NCBI GenBank assembly: GCA_022508605.1
Contig: JAFLUX010000014.1
Location: 1-44,221, forward strand
DNA: 44,221 bases
Origin: Bacteroidales bacterium
GTDB taxonomy: Bacteria; Bacteroidota; Bacteroidia; Bacteroidales; UBA932
Direction: 5' to 3'
In this document: piece after piece, positions 2 through 33,386 of the stretch
Position numbering within the stretch: the stretch's first letter is position 1
Layout: each line of letters begins with the position of its first letter
The notes under the pieces: model-generated
The model's input: the letters and a program-made list of their open reading frames with translations, nothing else
The model's database searches: none
Told to the model about the DNA's origin: nothing
Translations under genes and position numbers: made by a program

Positions 2-2605
2 AAGAACTACCAGCAGCGCTTTCAGGTGATTTCCGAGAAAGACTGGGACATCACCCAGGCTCCGGTGTGGATGGCCATCTACGACCGCAGCGGCAACGAG
101 GGCGTGAGCGGTGAGGCCGGCGTGGTGGAGCGTTTCGCGGTTGCGGACGATGAACTCCGTCCTTTCGAGGCATCTACCGAACAGCTGGTATTCACCGAGA
201 AGACGGACGCCAGCAACGCCGCCGTACTGGCCACGGTCGACGTCACCGTTCCCGGTTGCGGCGACTTCATCAGCGCCAGCTGGGCCGAAACGGCTCTTTT
301 CAATGCCAGCGGAGAATTCTACAATGAAAATTCCGGAGGCTTCACCTCTTATTCCGCAGTGGTCGTCAGGGCTCCCTACGGCAGCGAGGTCTTCTTCGCA
401 TCCGTGGGCGACTGGATCGGCTTTGCGCAGGAACTCGCCTGGCAGAAAGAAGACTGGAACGGAAACGATCTTACCGTCCGCGGCATCCAGATGCTGGTCG
501 GCGAGGTCTCCTGCGACTTCAACGGAGATGAGCCCCGCACCGCCTACCTCATAGGCATTCCTGTCAATCAGGTGAAGGCGGGTTACACTGCGGACAAGGC
601 CCTGAACGCGGACGGTACCGTGGCCAAGGGTTATGAGCAGTTCGTCCTCAGCACGATTACCCAGATTGCCGCGGCTCCCAGCGATGCCAATGCTTTGGTC
701 AAATGGGCATGGTCCGATGATGAGATAGGCGAGTATGACAGGGATGATTTCGCTACCCTGGAAACCATACGCCCGGCAGACGGCAAGGACGAACGGACGC
801 AGTTCTTCGCCAAGGACTGGGCGACGGCCCCCGTCGCGTATGCGGTCCATTACAAGAATCTCGAGGCATTTTCTGTCGCAGGACTCATCGTCCCCGAACA
901 TGCAAGCGTCGAGGTGTACGGTCCTGAAGGCCCCTGGGCCGAGGCTCCTCTGTCGCCCGAATGGGCTTTGTGGGATGCCACCACTCCGGTGATAGCCATC
1001 GACTACGATTTCGGCGCCGACAAGTGGAACACCGCCGTGCCGGATGACTTTACCGCCTTCTTCGTGTTCAAGGACAAGGACGGAAAGGTCATCACCTGGA
1101 TACTCTTCACCCTCGATCCCGTGCACTTCGTTCCCGGAGATCCCAAGGAACTCATTTCCGGCCCTTCATGCGACAAGGGCAGCGCGGCTCTTTTCAATCT
1201 CAACGCCGGAGAGCCCGGATACGACAGCAATTATTCCGGCATCCCTCAGTATAAGCTCGAGATGATAAACACCACTTCCGTCAGCTTCGAGACCGTTCCC
1301 GCAGGACGCGTGCAGGTATGGGGCGAAAAAGACGGTGCCGAGCACTCCGAATGGTTCCAGAGGATGGGCACATCCAACAGTTTCGTCGTGGAGACGGAGC
1401 AGGAAGATGCCGCCATGACCTTCTATGTCGTATTCCTGAACGGCACCGGTGCTCCCGTGGCTGTCCTGTACGTGGACTATCTTTACGGCAACCCCACGCT
1501 TCCTGCAGCCGGATTCGGCGGTGCGACGGCCATCAGCAACTCCGGCACCGAGCAGGGAAGCGCCACCCTTACGGAGCTCAAGGAAGGTGACCACGGATAC
1601 GACCCCGACACCACCGGTCCCCAGTATCTGCTCGAGGTCTCCGGAGCCAATTTCGTGCAGTTCGAGACCTTCCCTGAGGGAATCGACGATATCTGGAGCG
1701 ACGGCGACGAGGTTGAATATCAGGCCGGCATACTCTCATTCTTCCCCAAGGGTGATGAGGCTGAGTTCGATGTCATCTTCAAGAAGAACTATGCCAGCGT
1801 GGGCCTCATGCATGTCCATTACACCGGAGAGGGAGAACAGGGCGGCGACAAGCCTGCTGCCGCATTCGTTCTCGATGCCTCCAGCATATCCAACGGTGCG
1901 ACCGTCCGCCTGACCACTCCCGAAGACGAGTGGTACACCGCCTATGCGGGAGACGCGGAGCAGTGGACCCTCATAGTCAACCGTGAAGACCCCAAGGACG
2001 ACGGAGTCATTTTCCTCTCCTTCCCCAGCGTCGAGGACGAGCCCATGGTAATCGGAGACCACAATTACTTCGAACTGAATCCTCAGGGCAACAATATGAG
2101 CGTGATGCTGCTCGGAGACGCATGGGGCGTTGTCGAGAGCGCCGAATACAACGTGTTCTTCTATGATCCCCAGTGGCACGAGGTCGCTTACCGCCTGCAC
2201 GTGCGCTTCAATATGGACGCTGCCCCCGGTCCCGGCGGCAACGAGCCTGCCGGTGAACTCTTGGCTCTCGCGGAAGGCAACGCCGAAGGTGTTTCCCTCC
2301 GCAAGACCGCGGAGACCGACAGCTGGTTCATGAATACCATCGACTACGATCAGTGGACCCTCACCGTGAACGGGGCTTCCGACCTCGTGATGTTCTCGGC
2401 CGTCCCCAATCTCGACGGACTGCTCGTCCTTGAAGACCAGGACAACGAGAAAGGCTATTTCGAGGTGGAGAAGCAGGGTGCATCGTGGATTGTCTATCTG
2501 GCCGGTTCCGACTATGACGCCGGCAAGGCCGTGTATACCGTCGTGTTCTACGACCCTCAGTGGAGCGAGCCTTACTGCCGCCTGCACGTGGAGTGGAGCA
2601 AGTAA
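2..2605 (+). CDS. Secreted/surface protein with tandem beta-rich repeats (5' end outside window)
   Basis: ORF is open to the left window edge (AAG AAC TAC CAG CAG CGC TTT CAG GTG...; the listed start at 26 is an internal GTG). C-terminal half has repeated units, e.g. GSAALFNLNAGEPGYD..PQYKLE..SFETVPAG / GSATLTELKEGDHGYD..PQYLLE..QFETFPEG, and VFFYDPQWHEVAYRLHVRF / VVFYDPQWSEPYCRLHVEW. Confidence 0.8.
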   Translation, partial: KNYQQRFQVISEKDWDITQAPVWMAIYDRSGNEGVSGEAGVVERFAVADDELRPFEASTEQLVFTEKTDASNAAVLATVDVTVPGCGDFISASWAETALFNASGEFYNENSGGFTSYSAVVVRAPYGSEVFFASVGDWIGFAQELAWQKEDWNGNDLTVRGIQMLVGEVSCDFNGDEPRTAYLIGIPVNQVKAGYTADKALNADGTVAKGYEQFVLSTITQIAAAPSDANALVKWAWSDDEIGEYDRDDFATLETIRPADGKDERTQFFAKDWATAPVAYAVHYKNLEAFSVAGLIVPEHASVEVYGPEGPWAEAPLSPEWALWDATTPVIAIDYDFGADKWNTAVPDDFTAFFVFKDKDGKVITWILFTLDPVHFVPGDPKELISGPSCDKGSAALFNLNAGEPGYDSNYSGIPQYKLEMINTTSVSFETVPAGRVQVWGEKDGAEHSEWFQRMGTSNSFVVETEQEDAAMTFYVVFLNGTGAPVAVLYVDYLYGNPTLPAAGFGGATAISNSGTEQGSATLTELKEGDHGYDPDTTGPQYLLEVSGANFVQFETFPEGIDDIWSDGDEVEYQAGILSFFPKGDEAEFDVIFKKNYASVGLMHVHYTGEGEQGGDKPAAAFVLDASSISNGATVRLTTPEDEWYTAYAGDAEQWTLIVNREDPKDDGVIFLSFPSVEDEPMVIGDHNYFELNPQGNNMSVMLLGDAWGVVESAEYNVFFYDPQWHEVAYRLHVRFNMDAAPGPGGNEPAGELLALAEGNAEGVSLRKTAETDSWFMNTIDYDQWTLTVNGASDLVMFSAVPNLDGLLVLEDQDNEKGYFEVEKQGASWIVYLAGSDYDAGKAVYTVVFYDPQWSEPYCRLHVEWSK
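770..2602 (+). repeat. Degenerate protein-level tandem repeat, 4 clear units plus 1 possible, about 100-115 aa each
   Basis: Approximate units 770-1125 (weak), 1153-1494, 1529-1824, 1870-2217, 2260-2602. Shared pattern: acidic beta-strands then (V/F)(V/F)(F/Y)..(Y/L)(R/V)LHV(R/E)(F/W)-like end. Confidence 0.6.
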
Positions 2606-2617
2606 TACATCGTTTGC

Positions 2618-2653
2618 GCAAGTCCCCGCATGGGGCGGGGACTTGCTTTTTTT
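2618..2653 (+). terminator. Rho-independent terminator
   Basis: Perfect 12-bp stem GCAAGTCCCCGC / GCGGGGACTTGC, 5-nt loop ATGGG, followed by TTTTTTT. Confidence 0.9.
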
Positions 2654-2674
2654 ATTTTTACTGACTGCCTTTTT

Positions 2675-5341
2675 ATGAGCAACAGCAAACGCACAATACG
2701 CTTCGTCAATCTGATTTCCGCCGCCATGCTCTGCCTTTCCTCCTGCATGAAGGGCGAGATGCCGGACAATCGCGACCTCGATTACGGTTATGTACAATTC
2801 AAACTGTACAAGGAGGCCTCGTACGGGACTCGGGCCGTAGTGAGTCAGCTGGATTATCTGCATCTGGCGTCGAAGATTACCGTTAATCTGAATTACGGCG
2901 CATCCAGCATAGTGCAGACTCTGCCACTGTCCGCAGCGGACAATGAATCTGCGGAATTCGGCCTGCGCAGCGACAAGCTCAAGTTGCTCACCGGAGACTA
3001 CCGCGTAGTCTCATTCACTCTTTACGACGCCCTCGACGAGCCACTCTACATAGGGACCAACAGCAGTCCCGATTACCTGTCCGTCGTGGCCGGGGGGCTT
3101 TCTTCCTACGACCTTACGGTCGATGTGATTCCGCGCGGAAAGGCGCGATTCACCCTTTACAAGACCGGTGTAGAGAAATCCGTCCCGAAGACAAGGGCCG
3201 CTTCCGGAGAATATACGTTCGACGAGATAGCCCTGGCCGATATTTCAGTGCAGAACAAGGCCAACAACAGGACTTACAGCTTCAGGGGGCTCAAGATGGT
3301 TTTCTCCACCCATTTCGACGAAAACAACGAAGCCGACGGCACTTTCGGCTACATCACGTCTTCGAGCAGCTGCGATTCGCTGCTCTCCCTTCCCGCAAGC
3401 GACTACCGCATCAGTTCATACACTCTGTACAATTCGGGCCGCAGCGCGCTGGAGACCCGCACCGCCACAGAGGGAAGCCCCATACCGGGGGACTTCACCG
3501 TCGAGGACAACCGAACGACCGACGTGCGGGTGGGCGTGGACATACGCATGGGCGACGAATACATCAAAGACTACCTCGCCCTGAAAGAAATATGGGAGGC
3601 CCTCGGAGGACCCGGCTGGTATTATGCCGGAGAGATTTTCCCCCGTGGATGCAACTGGAATTTCAACAAGGACATAGACCTGTGGGGCGACCAGCCGGGA
3701 GTGCAGCTCCACTCGAACGGTCGTGTCGCGAGGATAGACCTGAGCGACTTCGGGGCGCACGGCGACATGCCCGAATCCCTCGGACAGCTGGACCAGCTCG
3801 TGGAACTTTATCTGGGCACGCACAACGATACGAATATCCTGGAATACGACCCGCTCGCCGACATGAGCCTTTCGGTGCAGCAGCGCTCTGCCGGACGCAT
3901 GGACAACCACAAACGCTACCTGTCCCTCCGTCATACCCCTCCGCAGATGTCCGAGCCCTGCGCCCGCGGACTCATGGAACACGGGATAGTGGTACCCGAA
4001 ACCTCTCTCTATGAACAGGGCTTTACCGAGGCCCAGATATTCGACCCCAAGACAGGCATTCAGAATACGGTGCGTCTGCATGACGTCGTCTCCGGCAAAC
4101 TCTGCAACGGCATCACCTCGCTGCCCGAATCCATAGGGAATCTTACGCATCTCGAATATCTTTATATCGCCAACGGCGAAATCGCGAGCCTCCCCGCATC
4201 CATTTCAAAACTCGAGTCCCTTACGGACCTGGAGCTTTACAACTGCCCGAAGATGCTCGAATTTCCGCTTCAGATAGGCGAGCTTCCTGAGCTGATATCG
4301 GTCAATATCTCCAACAACAGGCAGTGGAGCGCAGAAGAAATCTACAAGGGCGTGGATGCCCTTGCCCGGGGTGCATCGAACGGAAAGATACAGATTCTGT
4401 ATTGTACGGACAACAATCTGGAGGAGCTGCCGGAGTCCTGCCGCAACCTTACGAAAATAGGCCTCCTGGATTTGGAAAACAACAACATATCCGTGCTGCA
4501 CCCCTTCGGCTCCGGCGTCGCCCCGGTGCAGATATATCTTGGTTACAACAATATAGCTGAATTTCCGGTGGACGCGCAGGGGTATTTCTGCCAGATGAAC
4601 GACATGGAGACATTCTCCGCCCCCGGCAACCTCCTTACCGAATTTCCCAACATCTTCCGCACCAACGGATACACCATTTCCAGCATCGACCTCTCCCAGA
4701 ACCGGATTTCGAGCTTCCCGTCGAGGGACGAGTTCCGAGGAATACGGGTTACGACGCTGACCCTGAGCGTGAATCCCATCACGAAGTTTCCCTCTGTCCT
4801 TATCAACAACGACAAGGATTCGGCCATCGCATATATAGTCATACGCGGCTGCGCCCTCGACGGCTTCGAGGAAAACTCATTCGTGGGCAAGAACTCTGCG
4901 GCGCTGATGTCCCTCGACCTTTCCTACAACCATCTGAAAGAATTTCCGAAGGATTTCAGTGCCTCGAACATGCCCTACCTGTACGGCGTGGACGTGTCTT
5001 TCAATGCATTCTCCAAATTTCCTTACGAGCCCTTCGACGCCTATACCCTCACCATCTATGCCGTCCGCTCGCAGCGCGACGAAAACGGACGCCGCTGCCT
5101 GAGCGAATGGCCCACTGGCGTTTATCAGCACACCGGACTGAGGGCGCTGTATCTGGGCTCCAATGACATACGCAAGGTAAACGACCAGATTTCCTATCTC
5201 ATCTACTATCTCGACATCAGCGACAACCCCAACATCACTTTCGACGCCTCGGACATCTGCGCCTACTGGATGGCGGGATATTACTACCTGATTTACGACA
5301 AGACCCAGAATATTCTCAATTGCTCGGCAATGCTTCAATAG
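2675..5341 (+). CDS. Leucine-rich-repeat surface lipoprotein (DUF4458-like N-terminus suspected)
   Basis: MSNSKRTIRFVNLISAAMLCLSSC lipobox; many LRRs (LESLTDLELYNCPKMLEFPLQIGELPELISVNISNN; LRALYLGSNDIRKV). Listed ORF start 2630 lies in the terminator loop; ATG 2675 is the likely start. Confidence 0.85.
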   Translation: MSNSKRTIRFVNLISAAMLCLSSCMKGEMPDNRDLDYGYVQFKLYKEASYGTRAVVSQLDYLHLASKITVNLNYGASSIVQTLPLSAADNESAEFGLRSDKLKLLTGDYRVVSFTLYDALDEPLYIGTNSSPDYLSVVAGGLSSYDLTVDVIPRGKARFTLYKTGVEKSVPKTRAASGEYTFDEIALADISVQNKANNRTYSFRGLKMVFSTHFDENNEADGTFGYITSSSSCDSLLSLPASDYRISSYTLYNSGRSALETRTATEGSPIPGDFTVEDNRTTDVRVGVDIRMGDEYIKDYLALKEIWEALGGPGWYYAGEIFPRGCNWNFNKDIDLWGDQPGVQLHSNGRVARIDLSDFGAHGDMPESLGQLDQLVELYLGTHNDTNILEYDPLADMSLSVQQRSAGRMDNHKRYLSLRHTPPQMSEPCARGLMEHGIVVPETSLYEQGFTEAQIFDPKTGIQNTVRLHDVVSGKLCNGITSLPESIGNLTHLEYLYIANGEIASLPASISKLESLTDLELYNCPKMLEFPLQIGELPELISVNISNNRQWSAEEIYKGVDALARGASNGKIQILYCTDNNLEELPESCRNLTKIGLLDLENNNISVLHPFGSGVAPVQIYLGYNNIAEFPVDAQGYFCQMNDMETFSAPGNLLTEFPNIFRTNGYTISSIDLSQNRISSFPSRDEFRGIRVTTLTLSVNPITKFPSVLINNDKDSAIAYIVIRGCALDGFEENSFVGKNSAALMSLDLSYNHLKEFPKDFSASNMPYLYGVDVSFNAFSKFPYEPFDAYTLTIYAVRSQRDENGRRCLSEWPTGVYQHTGLRALYLGSNDIRKVNDQISYLIYYLDISDNPNITFDASDICAYWMAGYYYLIYDKTQNILNCSAMLQ

Positions 5342-5345
5342 ACTT

Positions 5346-7052
5346 ATGAGGACAAGGCTTTACATATCGCTGCTGCTTGGCATGCTGGCCGCGGCATCCT
5401 GCGTCAGGACGGAGGAGCCGGCAGGCTTCGGGGCGGATCTCGGAAAAATCGAAATCGGCGCTGACGGCGGGGCCCGTAAAATACGTATTTCTTCAAGCGG
5501 CGGCTGGATTGCGGTTACTGACAACCCGTGGATTTCCGTGTCTCCGGCTAATGGCCGCGGTTCTGCGGAGTGCCTCATCCAGATAGACTCCGCGCTGACG
5601 GGAGAGACGAGAAAAGGCCTCGTGAGTTTTCAGTCCCAGGGCGGATACGACAATATAGAAGTAGCGGTGGAACAGGAGGGTTATGCCTATCGCATTTCCC
5701 TTGAAAACAATACGGTGACAGTTCCCAATTACGCTGTCTACGGCAAGCGTTATTTCGAGGTGAAGGTGTCGGCCAATACGGAATTCGATGTGGAAATCCC
5801 CGATGATGCCTCTTGGCTGTCGGCGGAGCGTCCGGAGTTCGAGTTCAACCGGGGACTCAGGCCCCGCGAAGTGACCCTGCGTTTCGACTGGAAGATAAGT
5901 TCCCAGCCTGAGCGGCTGGCCCGGGTGCGCTTCGTACCGCGTTCTGCGGAGGTGTCGAATCCGGATATGCTGACCGTCATACAGATGGCGGCTCCGGAAA
6001 TAGAGGCTGAGACAAGACGGGGCGACTCCGTTGCCGTTCTCGGACTGGCCCGCTCCCTCGGGGCCTGGCAGGAGTGGGATGAGTCCGTGCCCATGGACCA
6101 GTGGGAAGGCGTGGTGCTGTGGGAAGAAGGCATGGACGGATATACCGAAGAAAAGGCCGGCCGCATCCGTAGTGCCGACATATACATGTTCGGCACTCGT
6201 GAAGGACTGCCCTATGAGGTGCAGTATCTGACGGCCGCGGAAGAACTCTCATTCAGGGGCAACGTCAATTCTTTCCTTTACAGTCTGAACCCAGGGGAGT
6301 ATATTACCAAGCTGACCGGCCTGAAGCGCCTGACGATGATGGGCTACGGCCTTACGGAAATAGGCGGGGACTTCATCGCCATGCAGGGACTGGAATACCT
6401 CGATATATCGGCCAACAATTTCGAGACCTTCCCCTCCGTCTTGAGAAAGGAGAATTTCCCCAATCTCAAGCATCTTGTCATGAATGCCAACCAGAGGGTC
6501 CTGGTGTACGACCTCAGCAATGCCAGTCTTTCCGACCTCGGAGGCTTCTACGCAGCCACGTCTCCGGACGGCGAGTTCCCCCGCTGGCTGCTCGAATGGG
6601 ACACCCTCGAGAGCCTGGTGCTCGGCGTGAATTATCTGCAGGGGCATCTGCCCTCGCTCGACGACGATGAATCCTGGACCTCGTTCTACACCGAAGCGGA
6701 TGTCGCCCGGGCGGATTCTCTGCCCTCCGGCAGTTTCCGCAGACTGAAGCCGGACGGAAGCCCTGAAGGCATAGTCGGACTTCCGAAGGTGTGGCCGCGC
6801 ATGAAAAGGTTCACCATCAACTACAACCGCATGACGGGCACGCTTCCGGACTGGCTGCTGTATCACCCCAATCTGGACTGGTGGGTGCCTTTCACCTTCG
6901 TTTTCAATCAGGAAGGCAAGGACGAGACCGGGCGCAACGCCGGTTTCGACAACGAGCCTCCCACTACGATGGAGTACTACTATAATTTCTATCCCAAAAA
7001 GCAGAATCCCTACGGCGATGAGGATGCCGTGGAAGACAAGCAGAAGAAATGA
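5346..7052 (+). CDS. BACON-domain, leucine-rich-repeat lipoprotein
   Basis: Lipobox LAAASC; BACON-like GGWIAVTDNPWISVSPANGRGSAECLIQIDS...GLVSFQS plus a second similar domain; LRR LKRLTMMGYGLTEIGGDFIAMQGLEYLDISANNFETFP. Confidence 0.85.
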   Translation: MRTRLYISLLLGMLAAASCVRTEEPAGFGADLGKIEIGADGGARKIRISSSGGWIAVTDNPWISVSPANGRGSAECLIQIDSALTGETRKGLVSFQSQGGYDNIEVAVEQEGYAYRISLENNTVTVPNYAVYGKRYFEVKVSANTEFDVEIPDDASWLSAERPEFEFNRGLRPREVTLRFDWKISSQPERLARVRFVPRSAEVSNPDMLTVIQMAAPEIEAETRRGDSVAVLGLARSLGAWQEWDESVPMDQWEGVVLWEEGMDGYTEEKAGRIRSADIYMFGTREGLPYEVQYLTAAEELSFRGNVNSFLYSLNPGEYITKLTGLKRLTMMGYGLTEIGGDFIAMQGLEYLDISANNFETFPSVLRKENFPNLKHLVMNANQRVLVYDLSNASLSDLGGFYAATSPDGEFPRWLLEWDTLESLVLGVNYLQGHLPSLDDDESWTSFYTEADVARADSLPSGSFRRLKPDGSPEGIVGLPKVWPRMKRFTINYNRMTGTLPDWLLYHPNLDWWVPFTFVFNQEGKDETGRNAGFDNEPPTTMEYYYNFYPKKQNPYGDEDAVEDKQKK

Positions 7053-9091
7053 TGGACAAAAGAAAAGACATACTGTGTTTTGCCGCACTGTCGCTGTGTG
7101 CGCTGCTGGCATTCTCCTCCTGTACGAAAGAGGAGCAGACGGCAGAGCCCGAAACGCCCCGCCAGCCTCTTACGGGCAGCGTCGCGCAGCAGGTCCTGGT
7201 GAAGTTCGAGCCGTATGTGGCCGATATGCTTGAAAAAAACGGACTCGTTTCCACCCGTTCGAGCATGCTTGGGCTGGATGAGGTGATGACCCTGATAGAA
7301 GGATGCAGCATAGAGCGTATTTTCCCCGTGGATGCCGCTTGCGAGGAGCGGACGCGGGAGGCCGGCCTGCACCTGTGGTATGTGGTCGGCTTCGATGCGG
7401 ATATTCCGGTGGAGGAGGCGGTGGAGCGCCTGTCCCGTATAGGGGAGGTGCAGGCGGCTTCTCCCAACCGCACCCTGAAGCGCTCTTACAACACGGACAG
7501 CAAGGCAGTGCCCCTTTCGGCGCAAGCCGTCCGGAAGATGATGGCCGTATCCATGGCCGGAGGCAGCGTGTTCAACGACCCCCTGCTGCCGCGCCAGTGG
7601 CACATCATCAACAGGGGAGACCTGCTCGACAAGTCGGTCGTCGGGTCAGATGTGCAATGCGAAAACGCATGGCAGATGTCCACGGGGGACCCCTCCATCA
7701 TCGTCGCCGTGCTCGATGAGGGCGTCTGTGTGGAGCATCCGGACCTTAAGGCCAACATGTGGCACAATGAGGGGGAAGTCTACCGCTCGCACGAAGACAA
7801 TGACGGCAATGGCTACAAGGGCGATTACTACGGATACAATTTCGTGTACGATACCGGCATCATATCCTGGGACCACATCTACGATTCGGGCCACGCCACC
7901 CATGTGGCAGGCGTGATAGCCGCGCAGAACAACAACGGGGAAGGCGTCAGCTCCATAGCCGGCGGGACCCCTTATGCGCCGGGAGTAAAAATCATGAGCT
8001 GCCAGATTTTCGCCGGCGGGGCCGCAGGCAACACCGTCATGATGGCCCGCGCCATCAAATATGCCACCGACAACGGGGCCGTGGTGCTCCAGTGCAGCTT
8101 CGGCTACACTTCAGGACGGGCCAATGCCTACGAATGGGGCGTGGACGGCTTCCGCGATCAGGAAGAGTGGGAGACATACTGCCCGCTGGAAAAAGAGGCC
8201 TTCGAGTATTTCTGCCACAATGCAGGTTCTCCCGACGGGCCTGTCTCCGGGGGTATAGCCGTATTCGCCTCCGGCAATGAGAGCGCTCCGGCGGCCGGCT
8301 TTCCCGGTGCCGCCTCCGCCCACGTTTCCGTGGCCGCCACGGCGGCAGACTATACTCCGGCGGTATACAGCAATTACGGGGACGGGACCACGATTTCGGC
8401 CCCTGGCGGCGACCAGAACTATTACTACGAATACGGCGGGCCGGGAGACCCGGACGGACTGGAGTACGGCGAGCTGGGATGCGTGTTGTCCACGCTGCCG
8501 TACAATATCAGCGAATCCGGTTACGGCTATATGGAGGGTACGTCCATGGCCTGTCCGCATGTTTCCGGCGTGGTGGCCCTCGGGCTTTCCTATGCCATGC
8601 AGTTGAGGAAGCATTTTACCGCAGATGAAATCAAGGAGCTGCTGTATGCCTCGGCCACTCCGATAGATGATTATTTCAGCGGCATAAAGCAGTACTACCG
8701 CTACGTGGCGGATGTGGGCAAGAACCAGATGATGCAGATGAGCCTGAGTGCCTACCGCAACAAGATGGGAGCCGGACAGGTGAACGCCGAAAGATTCCTC
8801 AAGGCGATAGAAGGCGGCGGACGCCCGGTGCAGTTCCCCAACCTGTATGTTAGCGAGGGCTGGGATGTCACGGTCGTTCCCGGCAACTATTTCCATAACG
8901 GAGAGAGTCTCACTTTCACCATGGACATTTCCGATGCGTCGGTGGCCTCGTGCACGTATGAAGGGAAACGCATCAGGGTGCACGGCATAAAGGAGGGCGC
9001 TACAGGAGCTCTCATACGCGCTTCCGACGGTACGAAACAGTCCTTTGTGATAACAGTGCGCAAGGGCGCTCATGACAGCGGTTGGCTGTAG
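7049..9091 (+). CDS. S8 family (subtilisin-like) serine protease lipoprotein
   Basis: Lipobox LLAFSSC; propeptide-like N-terminus; catalytic motifs VAVLDEGVCVEHPDL (Asp), SGHATHVAGVIA (His), GTSMACPHVSGVVAL (Ser). Confidence 0.93.
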   Translation: MMDKRKDILCFAALSLCALLAFSSCTKEEQTAEPETPRQPLTGSVAQQVLVKFEPYVADMLEKNGLVSTRSSMLGLDEVMTLIEGCSIERIFPVDAACEERTREAGLHLWYVVGFDADIPVEEAVERLSRIGEVQAASPNRTLKRSYNTDSKAVPLSAQAVRKMMAVSMAGGSVFNDPLLPRQWHIINRGDLLDKSVVGSDVQCENAWQMSTGDPSIIVAVLDEGVCVEHPDLKANMWHNEGEVYRSHEDNDGNGYKGDYYGYNFVYDTGIISWDHIYDSGHATHVAGVIAAQNNNGEGVSSIAGGTPYAPGVKIMSCQIFAGGAAGNTVMMARAIKYATDNGAVVLQCSFGYTSGRANAYEWGVDGFRDQEEWETYCPLEKEAFEYFCHNAGSPDGPVSGGIAVFASGNESAPAAGFPGAASAHVSVAATAADYTPAVYSNYGDGTTISAPGGDQNYYYEYGGPGDPDGLEYGELGCVLSTLPYNISESGYGYMEGTSMACPHVSGVVALGLSYAMQLRKHFTADEIKELLYASATPIDDYFSGIKQYYRYVADVGKNQMMQMSLSAYRNKMGAGQVNAERFLKAIEGGGRPVQFPNLYVSEGWDVTVVPGNYFHNGESLTFTMDISDASVASCTYEGKRIRVHGIKEGATGALIRASDGTKQSFVITVRKGAHDSGWL

Positions 9092-9095
9092 GGCT

Positions 9096-9890
9096 ATGCT
9101 GGGACGGGCCGTATCTTTCTTTGTCGTCATGCTTGTCGGCATACTGCCGCTGAGAGGCCAGACCATGCGCATAATTCCGCGGGAAGTGCTTGACAGCCTG
9201 GCCAATCCCCGTGCGGATGCGTGCAGCCCCATGCAGTTTGAGCAGACACGGATGGACATGGGTACGCTGAGTGAAGACGATGCTCCTGTTTCCGGCGTCT
9301 TCCGCTGGAAGAATACAGGCGGACAGCCTCTGCGCGTTTTGGAGGCCGCCACGGGATGCAGCTGCATTTCTGCGGAGTTCGACCGCAGCCCCGTGCCCGC
9401 CGGAGGAACGGGCAGCGTGACGCTCACCTGGCATCCTAAAGGACACCCTGGGCCTTTCCTCCGCAAGATTCCGGTCTATTGCGATTCCGGCGGCGCTCCG
9501 GCGGCCGTGCTCGAATTGACGGGAAAGGTGACTCCTTCCGTGAGGCCGGTGCACGATTATCCTTTCTCGCTCGGCCATTTGCTTCTGAAACGCACGCAGG
9601 TGTCCATGACAGGAAAGGAGCGCTGCATAGAAAGCATCGAGGTCATGAACGGGGGAGAGTCGCCGCTGCAGATTGAGGCGGATGAAAGGCTGCTTCCGCC
9701 GTTCATAAGCGTGGAGTGCCGCCCGCAGATCCTTCAGCCAGGGGACAAGGCGGATATAGAAGTGCGTTTCGACCCCGCCGGAGCGGCCCTCCTGCCGGAA
9801 CGGGTGCCTGTCCTGCTAAAGGGCTTGCCCGCGGGCCGGAACAAGATTTATGTTGTATTTGAAAAGGACATTCGATATGAAACTCAGTAG
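9096..9890 (+). CDS. DUF1573 domain-containing secreted protein
   Basis: Signal MLGRAVSFFVVMLVGILPLRGQ; FRWKNTGGQPLRVLEAATGCSCISAEFDRSPVPAGGTGSVTLTWHP is typical DUF1573. Listed start 9072 overlaps the S8 stop; ATG 9096 preferred. Confidence 0.8.
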   Translation: MLGRAVSFFVVMLVGILPLRGQTMRIIPREVLDSLANPRADACSPMQFEQTRMDMGTLSEDDAPVSGVFRWKNTGGQPLRVLEAATGCSCISAEFDRSPVPAGGTGSVTLTWHPKGHPGPFLRKIPVYCDSGGAPAAVLELTGKVTPSVRPVHDYPFSLGHLLLKRTQVSMTGKERCIESIEVMNGGESPLQIEADERLLPPFISVECRPQILQPGDKADIEVRFDPAGAALLPERVPVLLKGLPAGRNKIYVVFEKDIRYETQ

Positions 9891-10335
9891 ACTGACTATT
9901 CTGCTCACGCTCGCCCTGCTTGCCATTTCCTGCAGGAAAGAGCCTGCCGCGATGCCTGAACCGCTGCTCGATGTGAACGCGAACAACATATCCGGGGTGT
10001 GGAGGCTGGTGCAGTGGAACGGAAACGCCCCGGCGGAGGGGACTTATGTGTATATAGAGTTCACCAGACGCGACCAGCTCTTTACCATATACCAGAACCT
10101 CGATTCGGCCGGCGGAAGAAAGATTACCGGACGCTACAACATATACACGGATGATGAGTCCGGCGCAGTGATAAGGGGCCTGTACGACTACGGCAACGGC
10201 GACTGGGCCCACCGCTACGTCATAAGCGCACTGACACGCGTACGGATGACATGGACGGCAAAGGACGACCCTGACGACGTCTCCGTCTACGAACGCTGCG
10301 AAGAGATTCCCGCAGATATTCTTGAGGCCCTGTAG
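9877..10335 (+). CDS. Small lipocalin-like lipoprotein, function unknown
   Basis: MKLSRLTILLTLALLAISC lipobox; ISGVWRLVQWNGNAPAEGTYVYIEFTRRDQLFTIYQ lipocalin-like start. Overlaps the DUF1573 gene by 14 nt. Confidence 0.7.
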   Translation: MKLSRLTILLTLALLAISCRKEPAAMPEPLLDVNANNISGVWRLVQWNGNAPAEGTYVYIEFTRRDQLFTIYQNLDSAGGRKITGRYNIYTDDESGAVIRGLYDYGNGDWAHRYVISALTRVRMTWTAKDDPDDVSVYERCEEIPADILEAL

Positions 10336-10362
10336 ATTCCCGAAATCTGCGTGCGGCATGAA

Positions 10363-10394
10363 AAGGGGGCTGGCGAAGATTCGCCAGCCCCCTT
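10363..10394. terminator. Hairpin between convergent genes, probable (bidirectional) terminator
   Basis: Perfect 14-bp inverted repeat AAGGGGGCTGGCGA / TCGCCAGCCCCCTT with 4-nt loop AGAT; short T-run on the recA (minus) side. Confidence 0.75.
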
Positions 10395-10413
10395 ATGAAA
10401 TACAGATCCCGGA

Positions 10414-11442
<1,029 letters not shown>

Positions 11443-11467
11443 AACGTGTGGTTTTTGTATTTTCACA

Positions 11468-16987: not shown

Positions 16988-17800
16988 ATGAGGAGAAAGT
17001 TGTTGCTTTTTTCGATAGCGGGCCTTATGGCCGCATCGTGCGCTGCCCCCACGAACGTGACCTATTTTCAGGATTCGCAGGATCAGGAGATTTCCACCGA
17101 CGTGGCCACGGAGCAGATCCGTCTGCAGCCGGCGGACAAAATCGCCATAATACTGAACTGTCCTACCACGGAGCTGATGAACCAGTTCAACATGCCTTAT
17201 GTATCCCGTTACGTCGGCTCGGCCTCTGACGGCCCTACCCCCAACACCGGGGTGAGCGGCTATACCGTGGACGCGGACGGCAACATCGACTTCCCGGTCG
17301 TCGGAAAGATCCAAGTGGCCGGCCTGACACGTTCGGAGACAGCCGCAAGGATAAAGCATGAGCTTCAGGCCAGGGACCTGGTGAAGGACCCTGTCGTCAC
17401 GGTAGACTATATGAACCTCTACGTGTCCTTGATGGGCGAGGTCGCCAAGCCGGGACGTTATGCTATAACGCGGGATGCGTTCACGATACTCGACGCCATA
17501 GCCATGGCGGGGGACCTGACCATCTTCGGCCGTCGCGACAACGTGATGGTCATAAGGGACGAGAACGGAGTACAGAAAACCTATTTGGTGGATTTGCGCT
17601 CCGCGGAAAGCGTGGCCAAGTCCCCGGTATACTACATACGCCAGAACGACGTCGTCTATGTCTCGCCCAACGCGATGCGCACCAGGCAGTCCACGGTCAA
17701 CGGAAACACCGTGATGAGCACGTCTTTCTGGATTTCTATAGCGTCATTGGCTGCGACCATCACTTCCACGGTGGTCGTCGTGCTGGCGAGAACCCGATAG
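16988..17800 (+). CDS. Polysaccharide export lipoprotein (Wza/BexD-like, SLBB)
   Basis: Lipobox LMAASC; LQPADKIAIILN; GYTVDADGNIDFPVVGKIQVAGLTRSETAARI; VSLMGEVAKPGRYAITRDAFTILDAIAMAGDLTIFGRRDNVMVIR. Confidence 0.93.
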   Translation: MRRKLLLFSIAGLMAASCAAPTNVTYFQDSQDQEISTDVATEQIRLQPADKIAIILNCPTTELMNQFNMPYVSRYVGSASDGPTPNTGVSGYTVDADGNIDFPVVGKIQVAGLTRSETAARIKHELQARDLVKDPVVTVDYMNLYVSLMGEVAKPGRYAITRDAFTILDAIAMAGDLTIFGRRDNVMVIRDENGVQKTYLVDLRSAESVAKSPVYYIRQNDVVYVSPNAMRTRQSTVNGNTVMSTSFWISIASLAATITSTVVVVLARTR

Positions 17801-17810
17801 CTTTTACACT

Positions 17811-20180
17811 ATGGCTGAAGATATGAATACGAATCAGGCCGCCCGTTTCGACGGTGGCGGCGTAAATTTGAGGGAAATAGCGGGCAAGTGCATTTCGAAC
17901 TGGTACTGGTTCTTGATTTCGCTTGTCGTCTGCATAGGCCTCGCCGCGCTGTACATAGTAAAAACCCCGAAGATTTATACAAGGTCGGCCACCGTGCTCA
18001 TCAAGGAGACGGCTGTCCGCCGTACCTCCAACGACCTGGAGTCCATGCTCTCCGCCGGAGGCATGACGCAGCAGAGCTCGAAACTCTCCAACGAGATAAT
18101 AGCCCTGCAGTCTCCGGACCTCATGCGGGAAGTGGTGACGCGCATGGGCCTGGATTTCGACTACTTCGTTTCCGGCCGCGCCCGCAGGCATGTCATCTAC
18201 GGAGCGTCCCTCCCCATCAAGGCGGAGTTCCTCGAGCCTGCGCCGAGGGTGAGCATGGAGGTGATTCCGCTGTCCGCCTCCTCTTTCAAGATGGAAATGC
18301 ATTTCCAGGACACGAAGGAGAGCAAGAACTACAGAGGAAACTTCGGAGACACCCTGTCGACGGCAGTGGGCAGGCTGGTCATATCTTCATCTGGCACCGG
18401 CGCCGAGTTCGATACTCCCATATTCGTGGAGCATTATACGCTGCAGGCGGCAACCTCGTCCTATAACTCGCGTCTGAGCGCATCGGCGCTGAACGCTAAG
18501 AACTATTCTGACATCCTCTCGCTCACCATCACGGACCAGAGCCCGAGGCGGGCCGAGGACGTGCTGGACATGGTCATAAACGTCTACAACGAGAACTGGG
18601 TGGACGACCGCAACAAGATGGCTGTCAGCACCTCTCTGTTCATAGACGACCGTCTCAAGGCCATAGAGACCGACCTCGGGGCCGTAGATTCGGACATATC
18701 CTCCTTCAAGAGCCGCTATGTGGTCCCTGACGTCGCAGCCGCCGCCAGCATGTACATGTCGCAGACCCAGGAGGCCGGACGGCAGATACAAGACCTGGAC
18801 AATCAGCTTTATACCGCGCGCTACATACGCACGAGCATGAGCACTGCCGAAGACCTCTCAAAGCCGCTGCCCTCTCCTCCGGGACTTACCAATATCAATA
18901 TATCCACGCAGATAGGAAGATATAACGATATGGTAATCAAGCGCAACAACATCGTTGCCAATTCTTCTGACAAAAACCCTCTGGTGCAGGAGCTCGATAC
19001 CAATCTCCGCGATCTCAGGTCTTCCATATTCCTATCCATAGACGACCTCATCAATACCCTGCAAGCCCAGAAGGCGAACATAGAAAAGGCCGAACAGAAG
19101 GCCACCTCCCGCCTTGCGGACAACCCCAAGCAGACCAACTACCTGCTCAGCGTGGAGCGCCAGCAGAAGGTGAAGGAGGCCCTTTACATCTTCCTGCTCC
19201 AGAAGCGCGAGGAAAACGAGCTGTCCCAGGCCTTCACCGCCTACAACACCCGCGTGATTACCAAGCCTACCGGCTCTCCGTTCCCGACATCCCCCAATAC
19301 GAAGCAGATTCTCATGCTCGCGTTCATGATGGGAATCATGCTCCCGCTGATCTTGATTTATATATCCCTTGTCGCGGACACGAAAATACGCAACCGCAAG
19401 GACCTCGAAGTCCTTTCCGCCCCCTTCCTCGGGGAAGTGCCGCTCCACGGCAAGAAAAAGAGCCCTCGCAAGGACGGAGAAACCCCTGAACTGGTCGTCG
19501 AATCCGGAAAACGCGATGCCGTGAACGAAGCGTTCCGCGTGTGCCGCACCAATATAGAGTTCATCGCCAGAGGTTCGTACAGCAAGGTAATGATCGTGAC
19601 TTCCTTCAACCCCGGCAGCGGAAAGACTTTCGTCACTTCCAACCTCGGAGCGGCGCTTGCCATCAAGGGCAATAAAGTGCTGCTCATAGACGGAGACCTG
19701 AGGCACTGCTCCCTGTCGTCCGTATTCGGGCGTCCGAAAAATGGCCTGTCCGACTATCTGTCCATGGATGGAGTCGACCTGGAGTCCATCATCGTACACC
19801 CCCAGGGCTATGGGAACCTTTCCGTCCTGCCTGTAGGAACCGTGCCTCCGAATCCCAGCGAACTCGTGGGCAGCGAGAAATTCCAGGAACTGCTCGATGC
19901 AGTGAAGGATTCCTACGATTACGTCTTCGTAGACTGCCCTCCGTACAATGTGGTCGCCGACACGCAGATTATAGCCCAGTGGGCTGACCGGTCCATATTC
20001 GTCGTCCGCTCCGGCAGGCTCGAAAAGGACATGCTTGCCGAACTGGAGGGCCTTTGCGGCTCGAAGAAGCTGAAAGACCTTTCCGTGCTGCTGAATGCCA
20101 CCGAACTCAATGCCGGCCGCTCAGGCTACGGCTATGGTTACGGGTATCACGGCTACGACTACTATTCCCAGAAGAACTGA
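17811..20180 (+). CDS. Wzc-type polysaccharide co-polymerase / BY tyrosine kinase
   Basis: Wzz/GNVR-like N-terminus; Walker A NPGSGKTFVTSNLGAALA, LLIDGDLRHCSLS, FVDCPPYNVVAD; tyrosine-rich tail SGYGYGYGYHGYDYYSQKN. Confidence 0.95.
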   Translation: MAEDMNTNQAARFDGGGVNLREIAGKCISNWYWFLISLVVCIGLAALYIVKTPKIYTRSATVLIKETAVRRTSNDLESMLSAGGMTQQSSKLSNEIIALQSPDLMREVVTRMGLDFDYFVSGRARRHVIYGASLPIKAEFLEPAPRVSMEVIPLSASSFKMEMHFQDTKESKNYRGNFGDTLSTAVGRLVISSSGTGAEFDTPIFVEHYTLQAATSSYNSRLSASALNAKNYSDILSLTITDQSPRRAEDVLDMVINVYNENWVDDRNKMAVSTSLFIDDRLKAIETDLGAVDSDISSFKSRYVVPDVAAAASMYMSQTQEAGRQIQDLDNQLYTARYIRTSMSTAEDLSKPLPSPPGLTNINISTQIGRYNDMVIKRNNIVANSSDKNPLVQELDTNLRDLRSSIFLSIDDLINTLQAQKANIEKAEQKATSRLADNPKQTNYLLSVERQQKVKEALYIFLLQKREENELSQAFTAYNTRVITKPTGSPFPTSPNTKQILMLAFMMGIMLPLILIYISLVADTKIRNRKDLEVLSAPFLGEVPLHGKKKSPRKDGETPELVVESGKRDAVNEAFRVCRTNIEFIARGSYSKVMIVTSFNPGSGKTFVTSNLGAALAIKGNKVLLIDGDLRHCSLSSVFGRPKNGLSDYLSMDGVDLESIIVHPQGYGNLSVLPVGTVPPNPSELVGSEKFQELLDAVKDSYDYVFVDCPPYNVVADTQIIAQWADRSIFVVRSGRLEKDMLAELEGLCGSKKLKDLSVLLNATELNAGRSGYGYGYGYHGYDYYSQKN

Positions 20181-20184
20181 CCTG

Positions 20185-22131
20185 TTGTACCGCAGCGTTT
20201 TGAACTCCCGTATTTACAAGTATATAGGCAGAGCATCCGTAAAATATCTGGATGTACGCTTGGTGCTGGCAATGGATGTATTCCTGTCCGTGCTGGCATC
20301 ATGCGTCGTGTACGGTATCGCCGTCTTCATACTTGACTGGGACATACTGCTGCAGCTGAAGTTCCGGCTTGTCTGGCTCATATCTTCGGCAGTGGCCTCC
20401 GCCCTGTCGTTCCTGGTTATGCGGACATACACCATAATCATCCGCCACACCGAGTTCCGGGACATAATTAAGTTCCTGCTTGCGCTCGGCTTGAAGGCCG
20501 CGATGATGGCGGTGCTCATGCTGGCATTCCTGCCGTTCAGCTGGTGGATAGCCCTGATGCTGTTATTCGACGTGTTGTTTTCCATCCTGCTGCTTACAGC
20601 CATGCGCCTGCTGATGATGGTCTTCTACAACCTTTACAAGTCGAAGGTGAGGGAAATACAGAGGTGCCGCAGGGTGTTCCTGTACGGCGTCTCGGACAAG
20701 TCCGCCGCCGCCATATCGAGGTTCAAGGACTCTTCCCACTACAACATAGTCGGAGTCATAACCCCCAACCCATCCTTGCGCCATACGCGCTTTGCGGACA
20801 AGACCGTGTATTATTGCGATTCGGAAGCGGCACTCGACAGGCTTGCCATGACCTCGTCCAGCACCGGCATATTGTTTACCGCCCAGAATGACGTGAAACT
20901 TGAGAATAACCGCCTTCTCCGCTTTGCCGGCAACCTCGGACTGAAAACCTTCATCCTGCCGGAGGTGGGGGAGCTGGACGAGGTGCAGGCCGTCAGCAGC
21001 ATACGCAATGTCAGGATAGAAGATTTGCTCGCGCGCGATGAAATCCGCATTTCCATGCAGGAGGTGCTTTCCGGTTTTTCCGGAAAAACGGTTCTTGTGA
21101 CAGGCGCCGCAGGCTCCATAGGCTCGGAGCTGTGCCGCCAGCTTTCGACCTTCGGCATATCTAAGCTGATACTTTTCGACAATGCCGAGACCCCCATGCA
21201 CAACCTCCGTCTGGAGCTGGAAGACAGCTTCCCCGACCTCGATTTCGTCCCTGTCATAGGAGACGTGCGCCTGGAAAGACGTCTCGACTTCACGTTCAGA
21301 CATTACCGCCCGGACGTGGTGTTCCACGCCGCCGCCTACAAACATGTGCCGCTCATGGAGGAAAACCCCTGCGAGTCCGTGCTCGTGAATTTCGTAGGCA
21401 CTGGGTATGTGGCCGAAAAGTGCGTGGAGTACGGGGTGGAGAAGATGGTCATGATATCTACCGACAAGGCTGTCAATCCCACCAATATCATGGGGTGCAC
21501 CAAGCGTCTTGCTGAAATTTATGTCCAAAGTCTCGGCCTTGCCATTGAGAAAGGGGAAAGACAGGGAAAGACCAAGTTCGTCACCACCCGTTTCGGCAAT
21601 GTGCTCGGCTCGAACGGCTCCGTCATACCGCGCTTCCTGGAGCAGATTGCAAAGGGAGGTCCGCTTACAGTGACCCATCCCGAAATCACGCGCTTCTTCA
21701 TGACCATACCGGAGGCCTGCCGTCTTGTCATGGAGGCCGCAGTCATGGATACGGCCAACCGTATATGCGTTTTCGACATGGGCGAACCTGTCAGGATAGA
21801 TTCCCTGGCAAGGCGCATGATAGAGCTCTCCGGATTCAAGGTGGACAAGGACATCAGGATAGAATATACGGGCCTGAGGTCTGGAGAGAAACTTTTTGAA
21901 GAGGTGCTTTCCAACGAGGAAAATACGGACCCGACCATGCACGGGCGCATCCGTATCGCAAAAGTGCGCACCTATGCTTACTCGGAAGCGGTGGATGCGG
22001 TGGAGAGACTGGGAGATTATGCCCGCAATGTCAGGATTCCTGAAATGGTCAGGCTGATGAAACAAATCGTGCCTGAATTCATTTCCAAGAACTCCAAATT
22101 CTCCGAATATGATGAAGCGCCTCTCTCCTGA
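20185..22131 (+). CDS. CapD/FlaA1-like membrane nucleoside-diphosphate-sugar epimerase/dehydratase
   Basis: N-terminal TM helices; TVLVTGAAGSIGSELCRQL; FHAAAYKHVPLMEENP; STDKAVNPTNIMGCTKRLAEI. Listed start 20095 overlaps the Wzc tail; TTG 20185 or a later ATG is more likely. Confidence 0.9.
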   Translation: MYRSVLNSRIYKYIGRASVKYLDVRLVLAMDVFLSVLASCVVYGIAVFILDWDILLQLKFRLVWLISSAVASALSFLVMRTYTIIIRHTEFRDIIKFLLALGLKAAMMAVLMLAFLPFSWWIALMLLFDVLFSILLLTAMRLLMMVFYNLYKSKVREIQRCRRVFLYGVSDKSAAAISRFKDSSHYNIVGVITPNPSLRHTRFADKTVYYCDSEAALDRLAMTSSSTGILFTAQNDVKLENNRLLRFAGNLGLKTFILPEVGELDEVQAVSSIRNVRIEDLLARDEIRISMQEVLSGFSGKTVLVTGAAGSIGSELCRQLSTFGISKLILFDNAETPMHNLRLELEDSFPDLDFVPVIGDVRLERRLDFTFRHYRPDVVFHAAAYKHVPLMEENPCESVLVNFVGTGYVAEKCVEYGVEKMVMISTDKAVNPTNIMGCTKRLAEIYVQSLGLAIEKGERQGKTKFVTTRFGNVLGSNGSVIPRFLEQIAKGGPLTVTHPEITRFFMTIPEACRLVMEAAVMDTANRICVFDMGEPVRIDSLARRMIELSGFKVDKDIRIEYTGLRSGEKLFEEVLSNEENTDPTMHGRIRIAKVRTYAYSEAVDAVERLGDYARNVRIPEMVRLMKQIVPEFISKNSKFSEYDEAPLS

Positions 22132-30441: not shown

Positions 30442-31532
30442 AAACGGGCTTCAATGAAATGCTCCGCCGCCTGGAGGCGGAGGAGAGGAAAAAGCTCGAT
30501 GCGAAGATTCCGGCATGGAGCGGGCTCGGCATAGAGATTCCGTCGTCGCTGAACTTCCAGCAGTGTTCGGGACAGACGGCCGCTCTGTACAAGGCGTCCC
30601 TGATAGCCGAGGGGTCCCGCGTAGCGGACCTTACAGGAGGGCTCGGGGCCGACAGCTGGGCCTTTTCCCGAAGGGCCTCGGCGCTCTGGTACAATGAGCG
30701 CGATGCAGCGCTCGCGAATGCCGTGCGCCGCAATTTCGGGCTCCTCGGTGTCTCCAATGCGGAGTTCCACAACTTCGATATCGTCCCGTCAGGACATGAC
30801 TGGACGGCCTCTCTCGGGGCTTTCAGGCCGGATGTGATATATATAGACCCTTCTCGGCGCGACCGCTCCGGGCGGAAAGTGTTCCTGCTCGAAGATTGCA
30901 GCCCCGATGTGCAGGCCCTGATGCCCTTGCTGCACTCCTTCGCCCCTCTTGTCATGATAAAGGTCTCTCCTATGGCCGACATGACCATGCTCCGGCGCCG
31001 TCTTGCGGACAGCCTTGCCGAAATACACGTCGTGGGGGCCGGAGGGGAGTGCAAAGAACTCCTGTGCATATGCCGCCGCGGTGCCGGGCCAGTAAGGACG
31101 GTTCTCAGCGAAGACGGCAAGCTCTATCCCTGGGCGGATGGCGGCGGACCCGATGCGGAGAGGGGAGAACTGCTTTTCGTGCCCTCCGCGGCACTCGTCA
31201 AGTCGGCCCTTCCGCTCCCGCCGGGTGCGGAAGCGCTCGGGACGGGGTCCCGCATGTGCCGCTGCGGATGGAACGGCACTTTGTCTTCTTTCGGAAGTTT
31301 CTACAGGATACTGGAAGATGCGCCTTTCTCCAAAGGCGGCATCAGGGAGGTAGGCGCGAGGTACCCGAGGGCGGAGGTGAGTGTTCGGGGGATTCCTGTG
31401 TCGGCCGAGGAACTTCGGGCAAAATTAAAGACGGGACCCGGAGGACCCGTCCATATCTTTGCCTGCCTTTGCGGAGGTGAGCGGCGCCTACTTGTCACCG
31501 AGAAGGTGACGGCTCCAGAACAGCCGGTCTGA
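30438..31532 (+). CDS. Class I SAM-dependent methyltransferase (THUMP-like C-terminus)
   Basis: VADLTGGLGADSWAFSRRA motif I; DVIYIDPSRRD; FLLEDCSPDV; VMIKVSPMADM. ATGA overlap with helicase gene. Confidence 0.85.
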   Translation: MKTGFNEMLRRLEAEERKKLDAKIPAWSGLGIEIPSSLNFQQCSGQTAALYKASLIAEGSRVADLTGGLGADSWAFSRRASALWYNERDAALANAVRRNFGLLGVSNAEFHNFDIVPSGHDWTASLGAFRPDVIYIDPSRRDRSGRKVFLLEDCSPDVQALMPLLHSFAPLVMIKVSPMADMTMLRRRLADSLAEIHVVGAGGECKELLCICRRGAGPVRTVLSEDGKLYPWADGGGPDAERGELLFVPSAALVKSALPLPPGAEALGTGSRMCRCGWNGTLSSFGSFYRILEDAPFSKGGIREVGARYPRAEVSVRGIPVSAEELRAKLKTGPGGPVHIFACLCGGERRLLVTEKVTAPEQPV

Positions 31533-33320: not shown

Positions 33321-33325
33321 GGCTG

Positions 33326-33333
33326 CAAAAATA
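33326..33333 (-). promoter_or_regulatory. S9 peptidase promoter -7 box (TAnnTTTG)
   Basis: Minus strand TATTTTTG, 5 nt before ATG. Confidence 0.55.
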
Positions 33334-33355
33334 AATATTATCCGAAGAAAAATCG

Positions 33356-33363: not shown

Positions 33364-33386
33364 GAGGTTAAAACAAGATTTCTGAA

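What the first reader, a model, noticed from the sequence alone, without database searches (positions are those of the whole stretch)
2..10335. Surface lipoprotein cluster: tandem-repeat protein + two LRR lipoproteins + S8 protease + DUF1573 + small lipoprotein
Six consecutive + strand secreted proteins, the last five nearly gapless. Four carry clear lipoboxes (LSSC, AASC, FSSC, AISC). At least two have acidic residues soon after the Cys (CVRTEE, CTKEE), like the surface lipoprotein export signal described in Bacteroidetes. A subtilisin-like protease co-encoded with binding-type LRR/BACON proteins suggests a coordinated cell-surface module for substrate capture and proteolysis, or protease-dependent processing of the repeat protein. 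The collective function is not obvious from any single family. This is the best candidate here for an undescribed system.
Basis: partly seen in the sequence, partly recalled or inferred. Interest (0 to 1): 0.62.

Follow-up and report, generated by a model that had tools for sequence, protein, structure and literature searches.

The report
Half of a surface protein-feeding operon
These six genes are the far half of a conserved nine-gene cluster that gut Bacteroidales bacteria probably use to catch, cut and import protein at the cell surface, and its protease carries an unexplained tail and a partner that may keep it in check.

Summary
The six ORFs are real, tightly packed and co-directional. 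They are the distal part of a nine-gene SusC/SusD-type locus that the contig edge cuts. Order: SusC, SusD, DUF4984 lipoprotein, repeat/BACON lipoprotein (g1), DUF4458-LRR lipoprotein (g2), BACON-LRR lipoprotein (g3), S8 lipoprotease (g4), DUF1573 protein (g5), Lipocalin_4-like lipoprotein (g6). In 80 related loci every gene occurs wherever the contig leaves room (SusC 59/59, S8 69/69; one marginal exception). The genome's own SusC-SusD ends another contig. A published B. thetaiotaomicron table gives BT0207-08 and BT0211-13 as SusD, DUF4984, BACON, S8, DUF1573, so the locus is known as annotation, without assigned function. Best reading: surface proteolysis plus peptide import, RagAB-like; import itself is untested. 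Two extra findings: g6 is a predicted eight-stranded barrel resembling potempin E (inhibitor of another protease class), and g6 relatives sit almost only beside this protease class. These proteases, and no other ORF examined, end in an extreme C-terminal G-W-[LMF] motif. S8-less versions of the locus exist. New variant of a known kind.

The parts
2..2605 (+). g1: repeat / Ig-like (BACON-type) surface protein, N-terminus lost at contig edge; lipoprotein in relatives
   Evidence: Open frame, no Pfam hit; relatives at the same position carry BACON and a lipobox in 80/95; fastest-evolving member, 28% mean identity
1184..1855 (+). first pair of ~110-aa repeats in g1 (residues 395-618)
   Evidence: local alignment 104 versus shuffled 28 +/- 5.6
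1856..2602 (+). second pair of ~115-aa repeats in g1 (residues 619-867)
   Evidence: local alignment 150 versus shuffled 30 +/- 5.6
2630..5341 (+). g2: DUF4458 + LRR_10 + LRR lipoprotein (likely start 2675)
   Evidence: Pfam; PDB 4ecn 2.3e-161 and 4eco; LSSC lipobox
5346..7052 (+). g3: BACON + LRR lipoprotein
   Evidence: Pfam; AASC lipobox; 76/76 eligible loci
7049..9091 (+). g4: S8 subtilisin-like lipoprotease with S8_N propeptide
   Evidence: Pfam; FSSC lipobox; catalytic D/H/N/S invariant in 89/89 relatives
7193..7618 (+). Peptidase_S8_N propeptide-type domain of g4
9080..9088 (+). extreme C-terminal G-W-L tail of g4
   Evidence: GW[LM] ends 87 of 88 orthologous S8 (the other ends GWLR); no non-S8 ORF among 1514 complete ORFs ends GW[LMFIV]
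9072..9890 (+). g5: secreted DUF1573 (Ig-like) protein, not a lipoprotein
   Evidence: Pfam DUF1573 6.4e-25; lipobox absent in relatives
9850..10335 (+). g6: small Lipocalin_4-like eight-stranded barrel lipoprotein (likely start 9877), candidate protease partner or inhibitor
   Evidence: AISC lipobox; AF2 pLDDT 93; Foldseek to potempin E 8ehd/8ehc and 2mhd; S8-adjacent genome-wide
10414..11466 (-). convergent recA-like gene, marks the downstream end of the operon (not part of it)
   Evidence: genes downstream of g6 are not conserved between loci

Best explanation
The six genes are genes 4-9 of a nine-gene SusC/SusD-type nutrient-acquisition operon specialised, most likely, for protein or peptides. 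Shown: gene content, order, tight spacing, lipoboxes, intact S8 catalytic residues, linkage to SusC/SusD and DUF4984 in relatives, and a SusC-SusD pair of the same orthologous type at the end of another contig of this genome. Inferred: the variable g1 and the LRR/BACON lipoproteins g2 and g3 capture protein substrate at the cell surface; the anchored S8 protease g4 cuts it; the SusD lid and SusC barrel take fragments across the outer membrane, as RagAB does for gingipain-cut peptides; g5 (DUF1573) plays a structural or periplasmic role. The small barrel lipoprotein g6 is a dedicated partner of g4, perhaps a potempin-like guard against self-digestion, and the protease's G-W-[LM] tail may be a docking site for g6 or the transporter.
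For: Nine-gene order conserved in 80 loci: SusC 59/59, SusD 66/66, DUF4984 69/70, g1 72/73, g3 76/76, S8 69/69, DUF1573 67/67, g6 65/65 of those with room; also the full locus in a genus of another family. Median gaps 11-33 nt. Own-genome SusC (67% identical to the locus type) and SusD run off the end of contig C71 (TIGR04056 750.9 bits, SusD Pfam). Published B. thetaiotaomicron table: BT0207-08 SusD, DUF4984; BT0211-13 BACON, S8, DUF1573. No carbohydrate-active enzyme among the nine genes. S8_N proteases of the genus lie near SusC/SusD in about 27 of 32 testable cases. Catalytic residues 89/89. RagAB as a peptide-importing SusCD relative. g6 fold and S8-specific placement.
Against: Substrate never tested; no SusD ligand can be read from sequence. 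Variants of the same SusCD-DUF4984-g1-g2-g3 core lack S8, DUF1573 and g6 and have another LRR plus a ~350-aa lipoprotein instead (L153, L154, L156, L178, L180), so the core may not need the protease. Four S8-g6 pairs are not beside SusC/SusD and some sit beside GH2 or GH53 genes. Deleting BT_0212 gave no phenotype in the one assay reported (EspB cleavage). The join C71-C6 is inferred across a contig gap. g6 resembles potempin E, whose listed partner forsilysin is a metalloprotease; the S8 enzyme mirolase is listed with potC.
Confidence: 0.7

Rival explanations
1. A glycoprotein-targeting utilisation locus: the S8 protease only strips protein so that glycans (or glycopeptides) can be imported through SusCD, with glycosidases encoded elsewhere.
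For: Most characterised SusCD pairs import glycans; S8-g6 pairs also occur beside GH2 (L045) and GH53 (L195) genes; BACON domains are common in glycan-utilisation proteins; about half of SusCD loci have no CAZyme and may rely on remote enzymes (PMC6499787).
Against: No CAZyme in the nine-gene unit in any locus examined; the only enzyme is an endopeptidase.
Confidence: 0.2
2. About g6 only: it is not an inhibitor but a generic ligand-binding or structural lipoprotein, or a chaperone or anchor that holds the protease by its GW[LM] tail.
For: Lipocalin_4 small lipoproteins are a broad Bacteroidales group with unknown roles (2mhd is the best fold match); no sequence link to potempins; tail and barrel co-occur.
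Against: Genome-wide restriction to S8 neighbours (21 of 22 hits), including protease-barrel-protease-barrel in L045, is what a protease-specific partner would show.
Confidence: 0.5
3. The protease matures or sheds the locus's own proteins, e.g. the repeat protein g1.
For: Tight linkage to a variable multidomain surface protein; S8 proteases can be processing enzymes.
Against: S8-less loci keep g1, g2 and g3; S8-g6 pairs occur without any g1-g3 relative (L189-L199); no conserved cleavage site was looked for.
Confidence: 0.07
4. A host-interaction module: LRR adhesins plus a surface protease acting on host proteins, with nutrition secondary.
For: LRR lipoproteins such as BspA are adhesins; other Bacteroidales surface proteases act on host proteins (established knowledge, not tested here).
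Against: Constant SusC/SusD linkage; present in many gut species of herbivores and birds; BT_0212 deletion had no effect on EspB cleavage.
Confidence: 0.08

Closest known systems
B. thetaiotaomicron BT0206-BT0214 (includes BT_0212, and BT_0210 which by memory is PDB 4ecn)
   Same: Published annotation gives SusD, DUF4984 at BT0207-08 and BACON, S8, DUF1573 at BT0211-13, matching this order; g2 matches 4ecn at 2.3e-161.
   Different: The B. thetaiotaomicron genes themselves were not compared here, apart from g2 with 4ecn. No function reported in the literature searched.
RagAB of Porphyromonas gingivalis and BT2263-64 (SusCD relatives that bind or import peptides)
   Same: SusC/RagA TonB-dependent barrel with SusD/RagB lid (TIGR04056); proposed to take up protease-cut peptides.
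   Different: By established knowledge the gingipains are not encoded with ragAB; here a lipid-anchored S8 protease and LRR/BACON lipoproteins are in the same operon. Ligand unknown.
Glycan PULs (Sus paradigm)
   Same: SusC-SusD followed by surface lipoproteins and a surface hydrolase.
   Different: No CAZyme; the hydrolase is an endopeptidase. Belongs to the class of CAZyme-free SusCD loci with peptidases noted in PMC6499787.
KLIKK protease / potempin pairs of Tannerella forsythia
   Same: Each protease gene sits next to a small lipoprotein; g6 has an eight-stranded barrel whose model matches potempin E (probability 1.0, TM by target 0.69-0.73).
   Different: No sequence similarity; g6 is downstream, not upstream; KLIKK proteases are secreted with a C-terminal domain, these are lipoproteins; potempin E is listed with the metalloprotease forsilysin; inhibition by g6 untested.
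Dentilisin complex (PrtP with partner lipoproteins) of Treponema
   Same: Surface S8 protease in a complex; weak profile match (NF033595 8.9e-19, below its cut-off).
   Different: No SusCD in that system (memory); no dentilisin partner proteins seen here.

Membership tests
SusCD-type (PUL-like) nutrient locus | adjacent SusC and SusD genes in the same operon as the surface lipoproteins | tested here: met
   59/59 and 66/66 loci with room; for this genome SusC-SusD lie at the end of contig C71 and the physical join to the window is not shown
SusCD-type (PUL-like) nutrient locus | uptake of a defined nutrient through the pair | not testable with these tools
   needs ligand binding or growth experiments
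Polysaccharide utilisation locus (strict) | at least one carbohydrate-active enzyme | tested here: not met
   none among the nine genes by Pfam and NCBIfam
Peptidase family S8 with S8_N | S8 and S8_N domains and Asp/His/Ser catalytic residues with oxyanion Asn | tested here: met
   (89/89)
RagAB-like peptide importer | SusC/RagA architecture | tested here: met
   TIGR04056 750.9 bits against cut-off 368.25
RagAB-like peptide importer | binds and imports peptides | not testable with these tools
   inferred only from the neighbouring endopeptidase
Potempin inhibitor | small outer-membrane lipoprotein encoded next to its protease | tested here: met
   lipobox 78/89; adjacency 21/22 genome-wide hits; outer-membrane location itself not tested
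Potempin inhibitor | beta-barrel fold of potempin type | tested here: met
   8ehd E 1.1e-3, probability 1.0, but 2mhd and other lipocalin-like barrels score similarly
Potempin inhibitor | sequence relationship to known potempins | tested here: not met
   profile search of PDB sequences finds no potempin; known potempins themselves share no significant similarity
Potempin inhibitor | inhibits the linked protease | not testable with these tools
   needs purified proteins
Surface lipoprotein with LES | acidic motif after the lipidated Cys beyond background | tested here: inconclusive
   g2 and g6 enriched, g3 and S8 not, SusD depleted; motif rule from Bacteroides (PMC6222051)
Lipocalin_4 (PF13648) | score above the Pfam cut-off | tested here: met
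   relatives L155 33.3 bits and L044 27.8 bits; window copy 20.4, just below 22.4

The most novel reading that the evidence does not exclude
The lipid-anchored S8_N protease with an extreme C-terminal G-W-[LM] tail and the following eight-stranded barrel lipoprotein form a portable two-gene cassette (mostly in SusCD loci, sometimes in tandem or next to glycosidases): the barrel recognises the tail and/or active site and keeps the surface protease latent or held to the import complex, a new kind of self-protecting surface-feeding protease.
Probability: 0.4. Interest if true: 0.65.

Novelty: new variant of a known kind. Interest (0 to 1): 0.52.

Why it matters
About half of SusC/SusD loci have no carbohydrate enzyme and no assigned substrate (PMC6499787). 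This one is a clearly bounded, widely conserved case whose only enzyme is a surface protease, with a counterpart in a tractable laboratory strain, so the idea that gut Bacteroidales run dedicated protein-feeding loci becomes directly testable. The protease-barrel pairing and the invariant GW[LM] tail offer a concrete handle, not found in the literature searched, on how a bacterium carries an active subtilisin on its own surface without harm.

Tried and rejected
Joining C71 to the window by overlap: not attempted, a gap of about 1 kb or more (SusD end, DUF4984, g1 start) is missing; the DUF4984 relative is not found in this assembly. A peptidase in the enzyme slot of S8-less loci: suspected M19 dipeptidase by eye, rejected by Pfam and NCBIfam (no peptidase family). 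Potempin E as inhibitor of the S8 enzyme mirolase: recalled from memory, contradicted by PMC7296668, which lists potE with forsilysin. LES as proof of surface exposure: rejected as non-discriminating. g1 fold: model too poor (pLDDT 65), matches only chains of Ig-like domains. First regex test of the S8 triad was too strict and was replaced by alignment. Rfam: nothing. No sigma-70-type promoter or terminator at 10200-10600 by the simple scan.
Full report
1. The observation. Six + strand ORFs occupy 2-10335 as stated. The window is a complete contig of a 99-contig, 1.94-Mb assembly, G000:C6, so the first ORF has no start and its secretion signal is not visible. Pfam gives DUF4458 and LRR for g2, BACON and weak LRR for g3, S8_N and S8 for g4, DUF1573 for g5 and a just sub-threshold Lipocalin_4 for g6. 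Four lipoboxes are confirmed. DUF1573 carries a hydrophobic Sec-type N-terminus without a lipobox. g1 has two pairs of ~110-aa repeats, not a DNA tandem repeat.

2. The unit is larger. S8 orthologues above 50% identity occur in eight genomes of the same genus. Around them the order g1-g2-g3-S8-DUF1573-g6 is kept (two of the eight loci are cut or had one ORF hidden by the ORF picker) and directly upstream lie SusC, SusD and a DUF4984 lipoprotein. A scan of named genomes with g2 returned 235 relatives; the best 80 are Alistipes, Tidjanibacter and other Rikenellaceae or Bacteroidales MAGs. With profiles built from these loci and six-frame search, each gene is found wherever the contig leaves room: SusC 59/59, SusD 66/66, DUF4984 69/70, g1 72/73, g3 76/76, S8 69/69, DUF1573 67/67, g6 65/65, all on one strand, with one local swap (L132). 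Gaps have medians of 11-33 nt. Genes outside SusC and g6 fall into 46 and 50 families among 75 loci, so conservation stops at these ends. In the window the next gene is a convergent recA-like gene.

3. This genome. Its SusC of the locus type (67% identity) and the matching SusD are on contig C71, and SusD runs off the contig end. The missing SusD end, DUF4984 gene and g1 start would fill the gap to the window. This join is inferred.

4. Wider distribution. g2 relatives occur in only 6 of 294 genomes drawn across the order. In the genus of G278, another family, 12 of 61 genomes have g2, mostly in the full nine-gene locus. A second type keeps SusC-SusD-DUF4984-g1-g2-g3 but has another LRR protein and a ~350-aa lipoprotein in place of S8-DUF1573-g6 (L153, L154, L156, L178, L180); one genome carries both types side by side (L178, L179). 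Published annotation of B. thetaiotaomicron lists BT0207-08 as SusD and DUF4984 and BT0211-13 as BACON, S8 and DUF1573 (PMC10434189); that paper reports lower expression in iron-depleted cells but with P 0.08-0.57, so nothing is concluded. BT_0212 was deleted in PMC6282197 and EspB cleavage was unchanged. I found no assigned function.

5. The protease. Asp, His, oxyanion Asn and Ser are invariant in 89/89 relatives, so activity is likely. S8_N proteases in 16 genomes of the genus lie within reach of SusC/SusD in about 27 of 32 testable cases (hand tally). They fall in two classes: ~680 aa, lipid-anchored, and ~870 aa, one of which was scanned and ends in a T9SS sorting domain (L064).

6. The tail. 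87 of 88 orthologous S8 proteins with a complete end finish in G-W-L or G-W-M; the other ends GWLR. All 18 distinct complete ~680-aa paralogues end in G-W-L or G-W-F. Most positions of the last nine residues are variable, but -3 and -2 are invariant. Among 1514 distinct complete ORFs in the held loci, 98 end in GW[LMFIV] and all are S8 (two of them identified by profile). The ~870-aa class lacks the tail. Its meaning is unknown.

7. The barrel. AlphaFold2 models g6 as an eight-stranded barrel (pLDDT 93). The best PDB folds are 2mhd and T. forsythia potempin E, 8ehd and 8ehc. Sequence profiles do not connect g6 to potempins. In 16 genomes, 21 of 22 g6-profile hits at E <= 1e-4 lie just downstream of an S8_N protease; the exception is a partial match. 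22 of 24 ~680-aa S8 genes have a g6 relative downstream (the other two are a contig-truncated gene and one masked frame), none of twelve ~870-aa ones (hand tally). L045 shows S8-g6-S8-g6 without SusCD; L047 is a tailed S8 without a detected g6. T. forsythia KLIKK proteases are likewise each next to an inhibitor lipoprotein (PMC7296668, PMC4404884), but potE is listed with a metalloprotease. Inhibition by g6 is therefore a hypothesis, about 0.4.

8. Mechanism. Most likely a surface protein-feeding operon: capture by g1-g3, cleavage by g4, uptake by SusCD. g1 evolves fastest (28% mean identity against 58% for S8 and 70% for SusC), as expected of an exposed binding or target-facing part. Support for peptide import rests on the lone endopeptidase, absence of CAZymes, and the RagAB precedent. 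The S8-less variants and GH-linked S8-g6 pairs are the main cautions.

9. Verdict. Real, conserved and larger than reported; a new variant of SusCD-type loci rather than a new category; function inferred, not shown.

Noticed in passing
window 9080-9088 and all ~680-aa S8_N relatives: Invariant extreme C-terminal G-W-[LM] motif on these S8 lipoproteases, found on no other ORF examined.
   Followed up: partly
L178 and L179 (G355:C2): An S8-less and an S8-bearing version of the same SusCD locus lie side by side in one genome.
   Followed up: partly
L045:7711-12539: S8-barrel-S8-barrel tandem next to a GH2 glycosidase gene, without SusC/SusD; L195 has GH53-S8-barrel.
   Followed up: partly
L186:195-12526: SusCD locus with an Mx1-type putative metallopeptidase plus a tailed S8 and barrel, in another family.
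   Followed up: partly
G000:C48 (L044:908-10774): Second SusC-SusD-lipoprotein-S8-Lipocalin_4 locus in the window's own genome.
   Followed up: yes
window 31491-34238 (-): Dipeptidyl peptidase IV family gene (DPPIV_N and Peptidase_S9) on the same contig, possibly useful for imported peptides but not linked.
   Followed up: no
window 16988-22128 (+): Polysaccharide export and synthesis genes (Poly_export, Wzz/AAA_31, Polysacc_synt_2), start of a surface polysaccharide cluster.
   Followed up: no
INPHARED records MT838017, MT837220, MT836477, MT836364, MT836370: Unannotated 'Bacteriophage sp.' records from faeces encode near full-length relatives of this S8 protease; they may be bacterial fragments filed as phage.
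   Followed up: no
upstream of SusC in 13 of 75 loci (e.g. L100, L051:9852-12956): A large lipoprotein-like gene upstream of SusC; the one scanned (L051) weakly matches DUF4906, a fimbrillin-like family.
   Followed up: no
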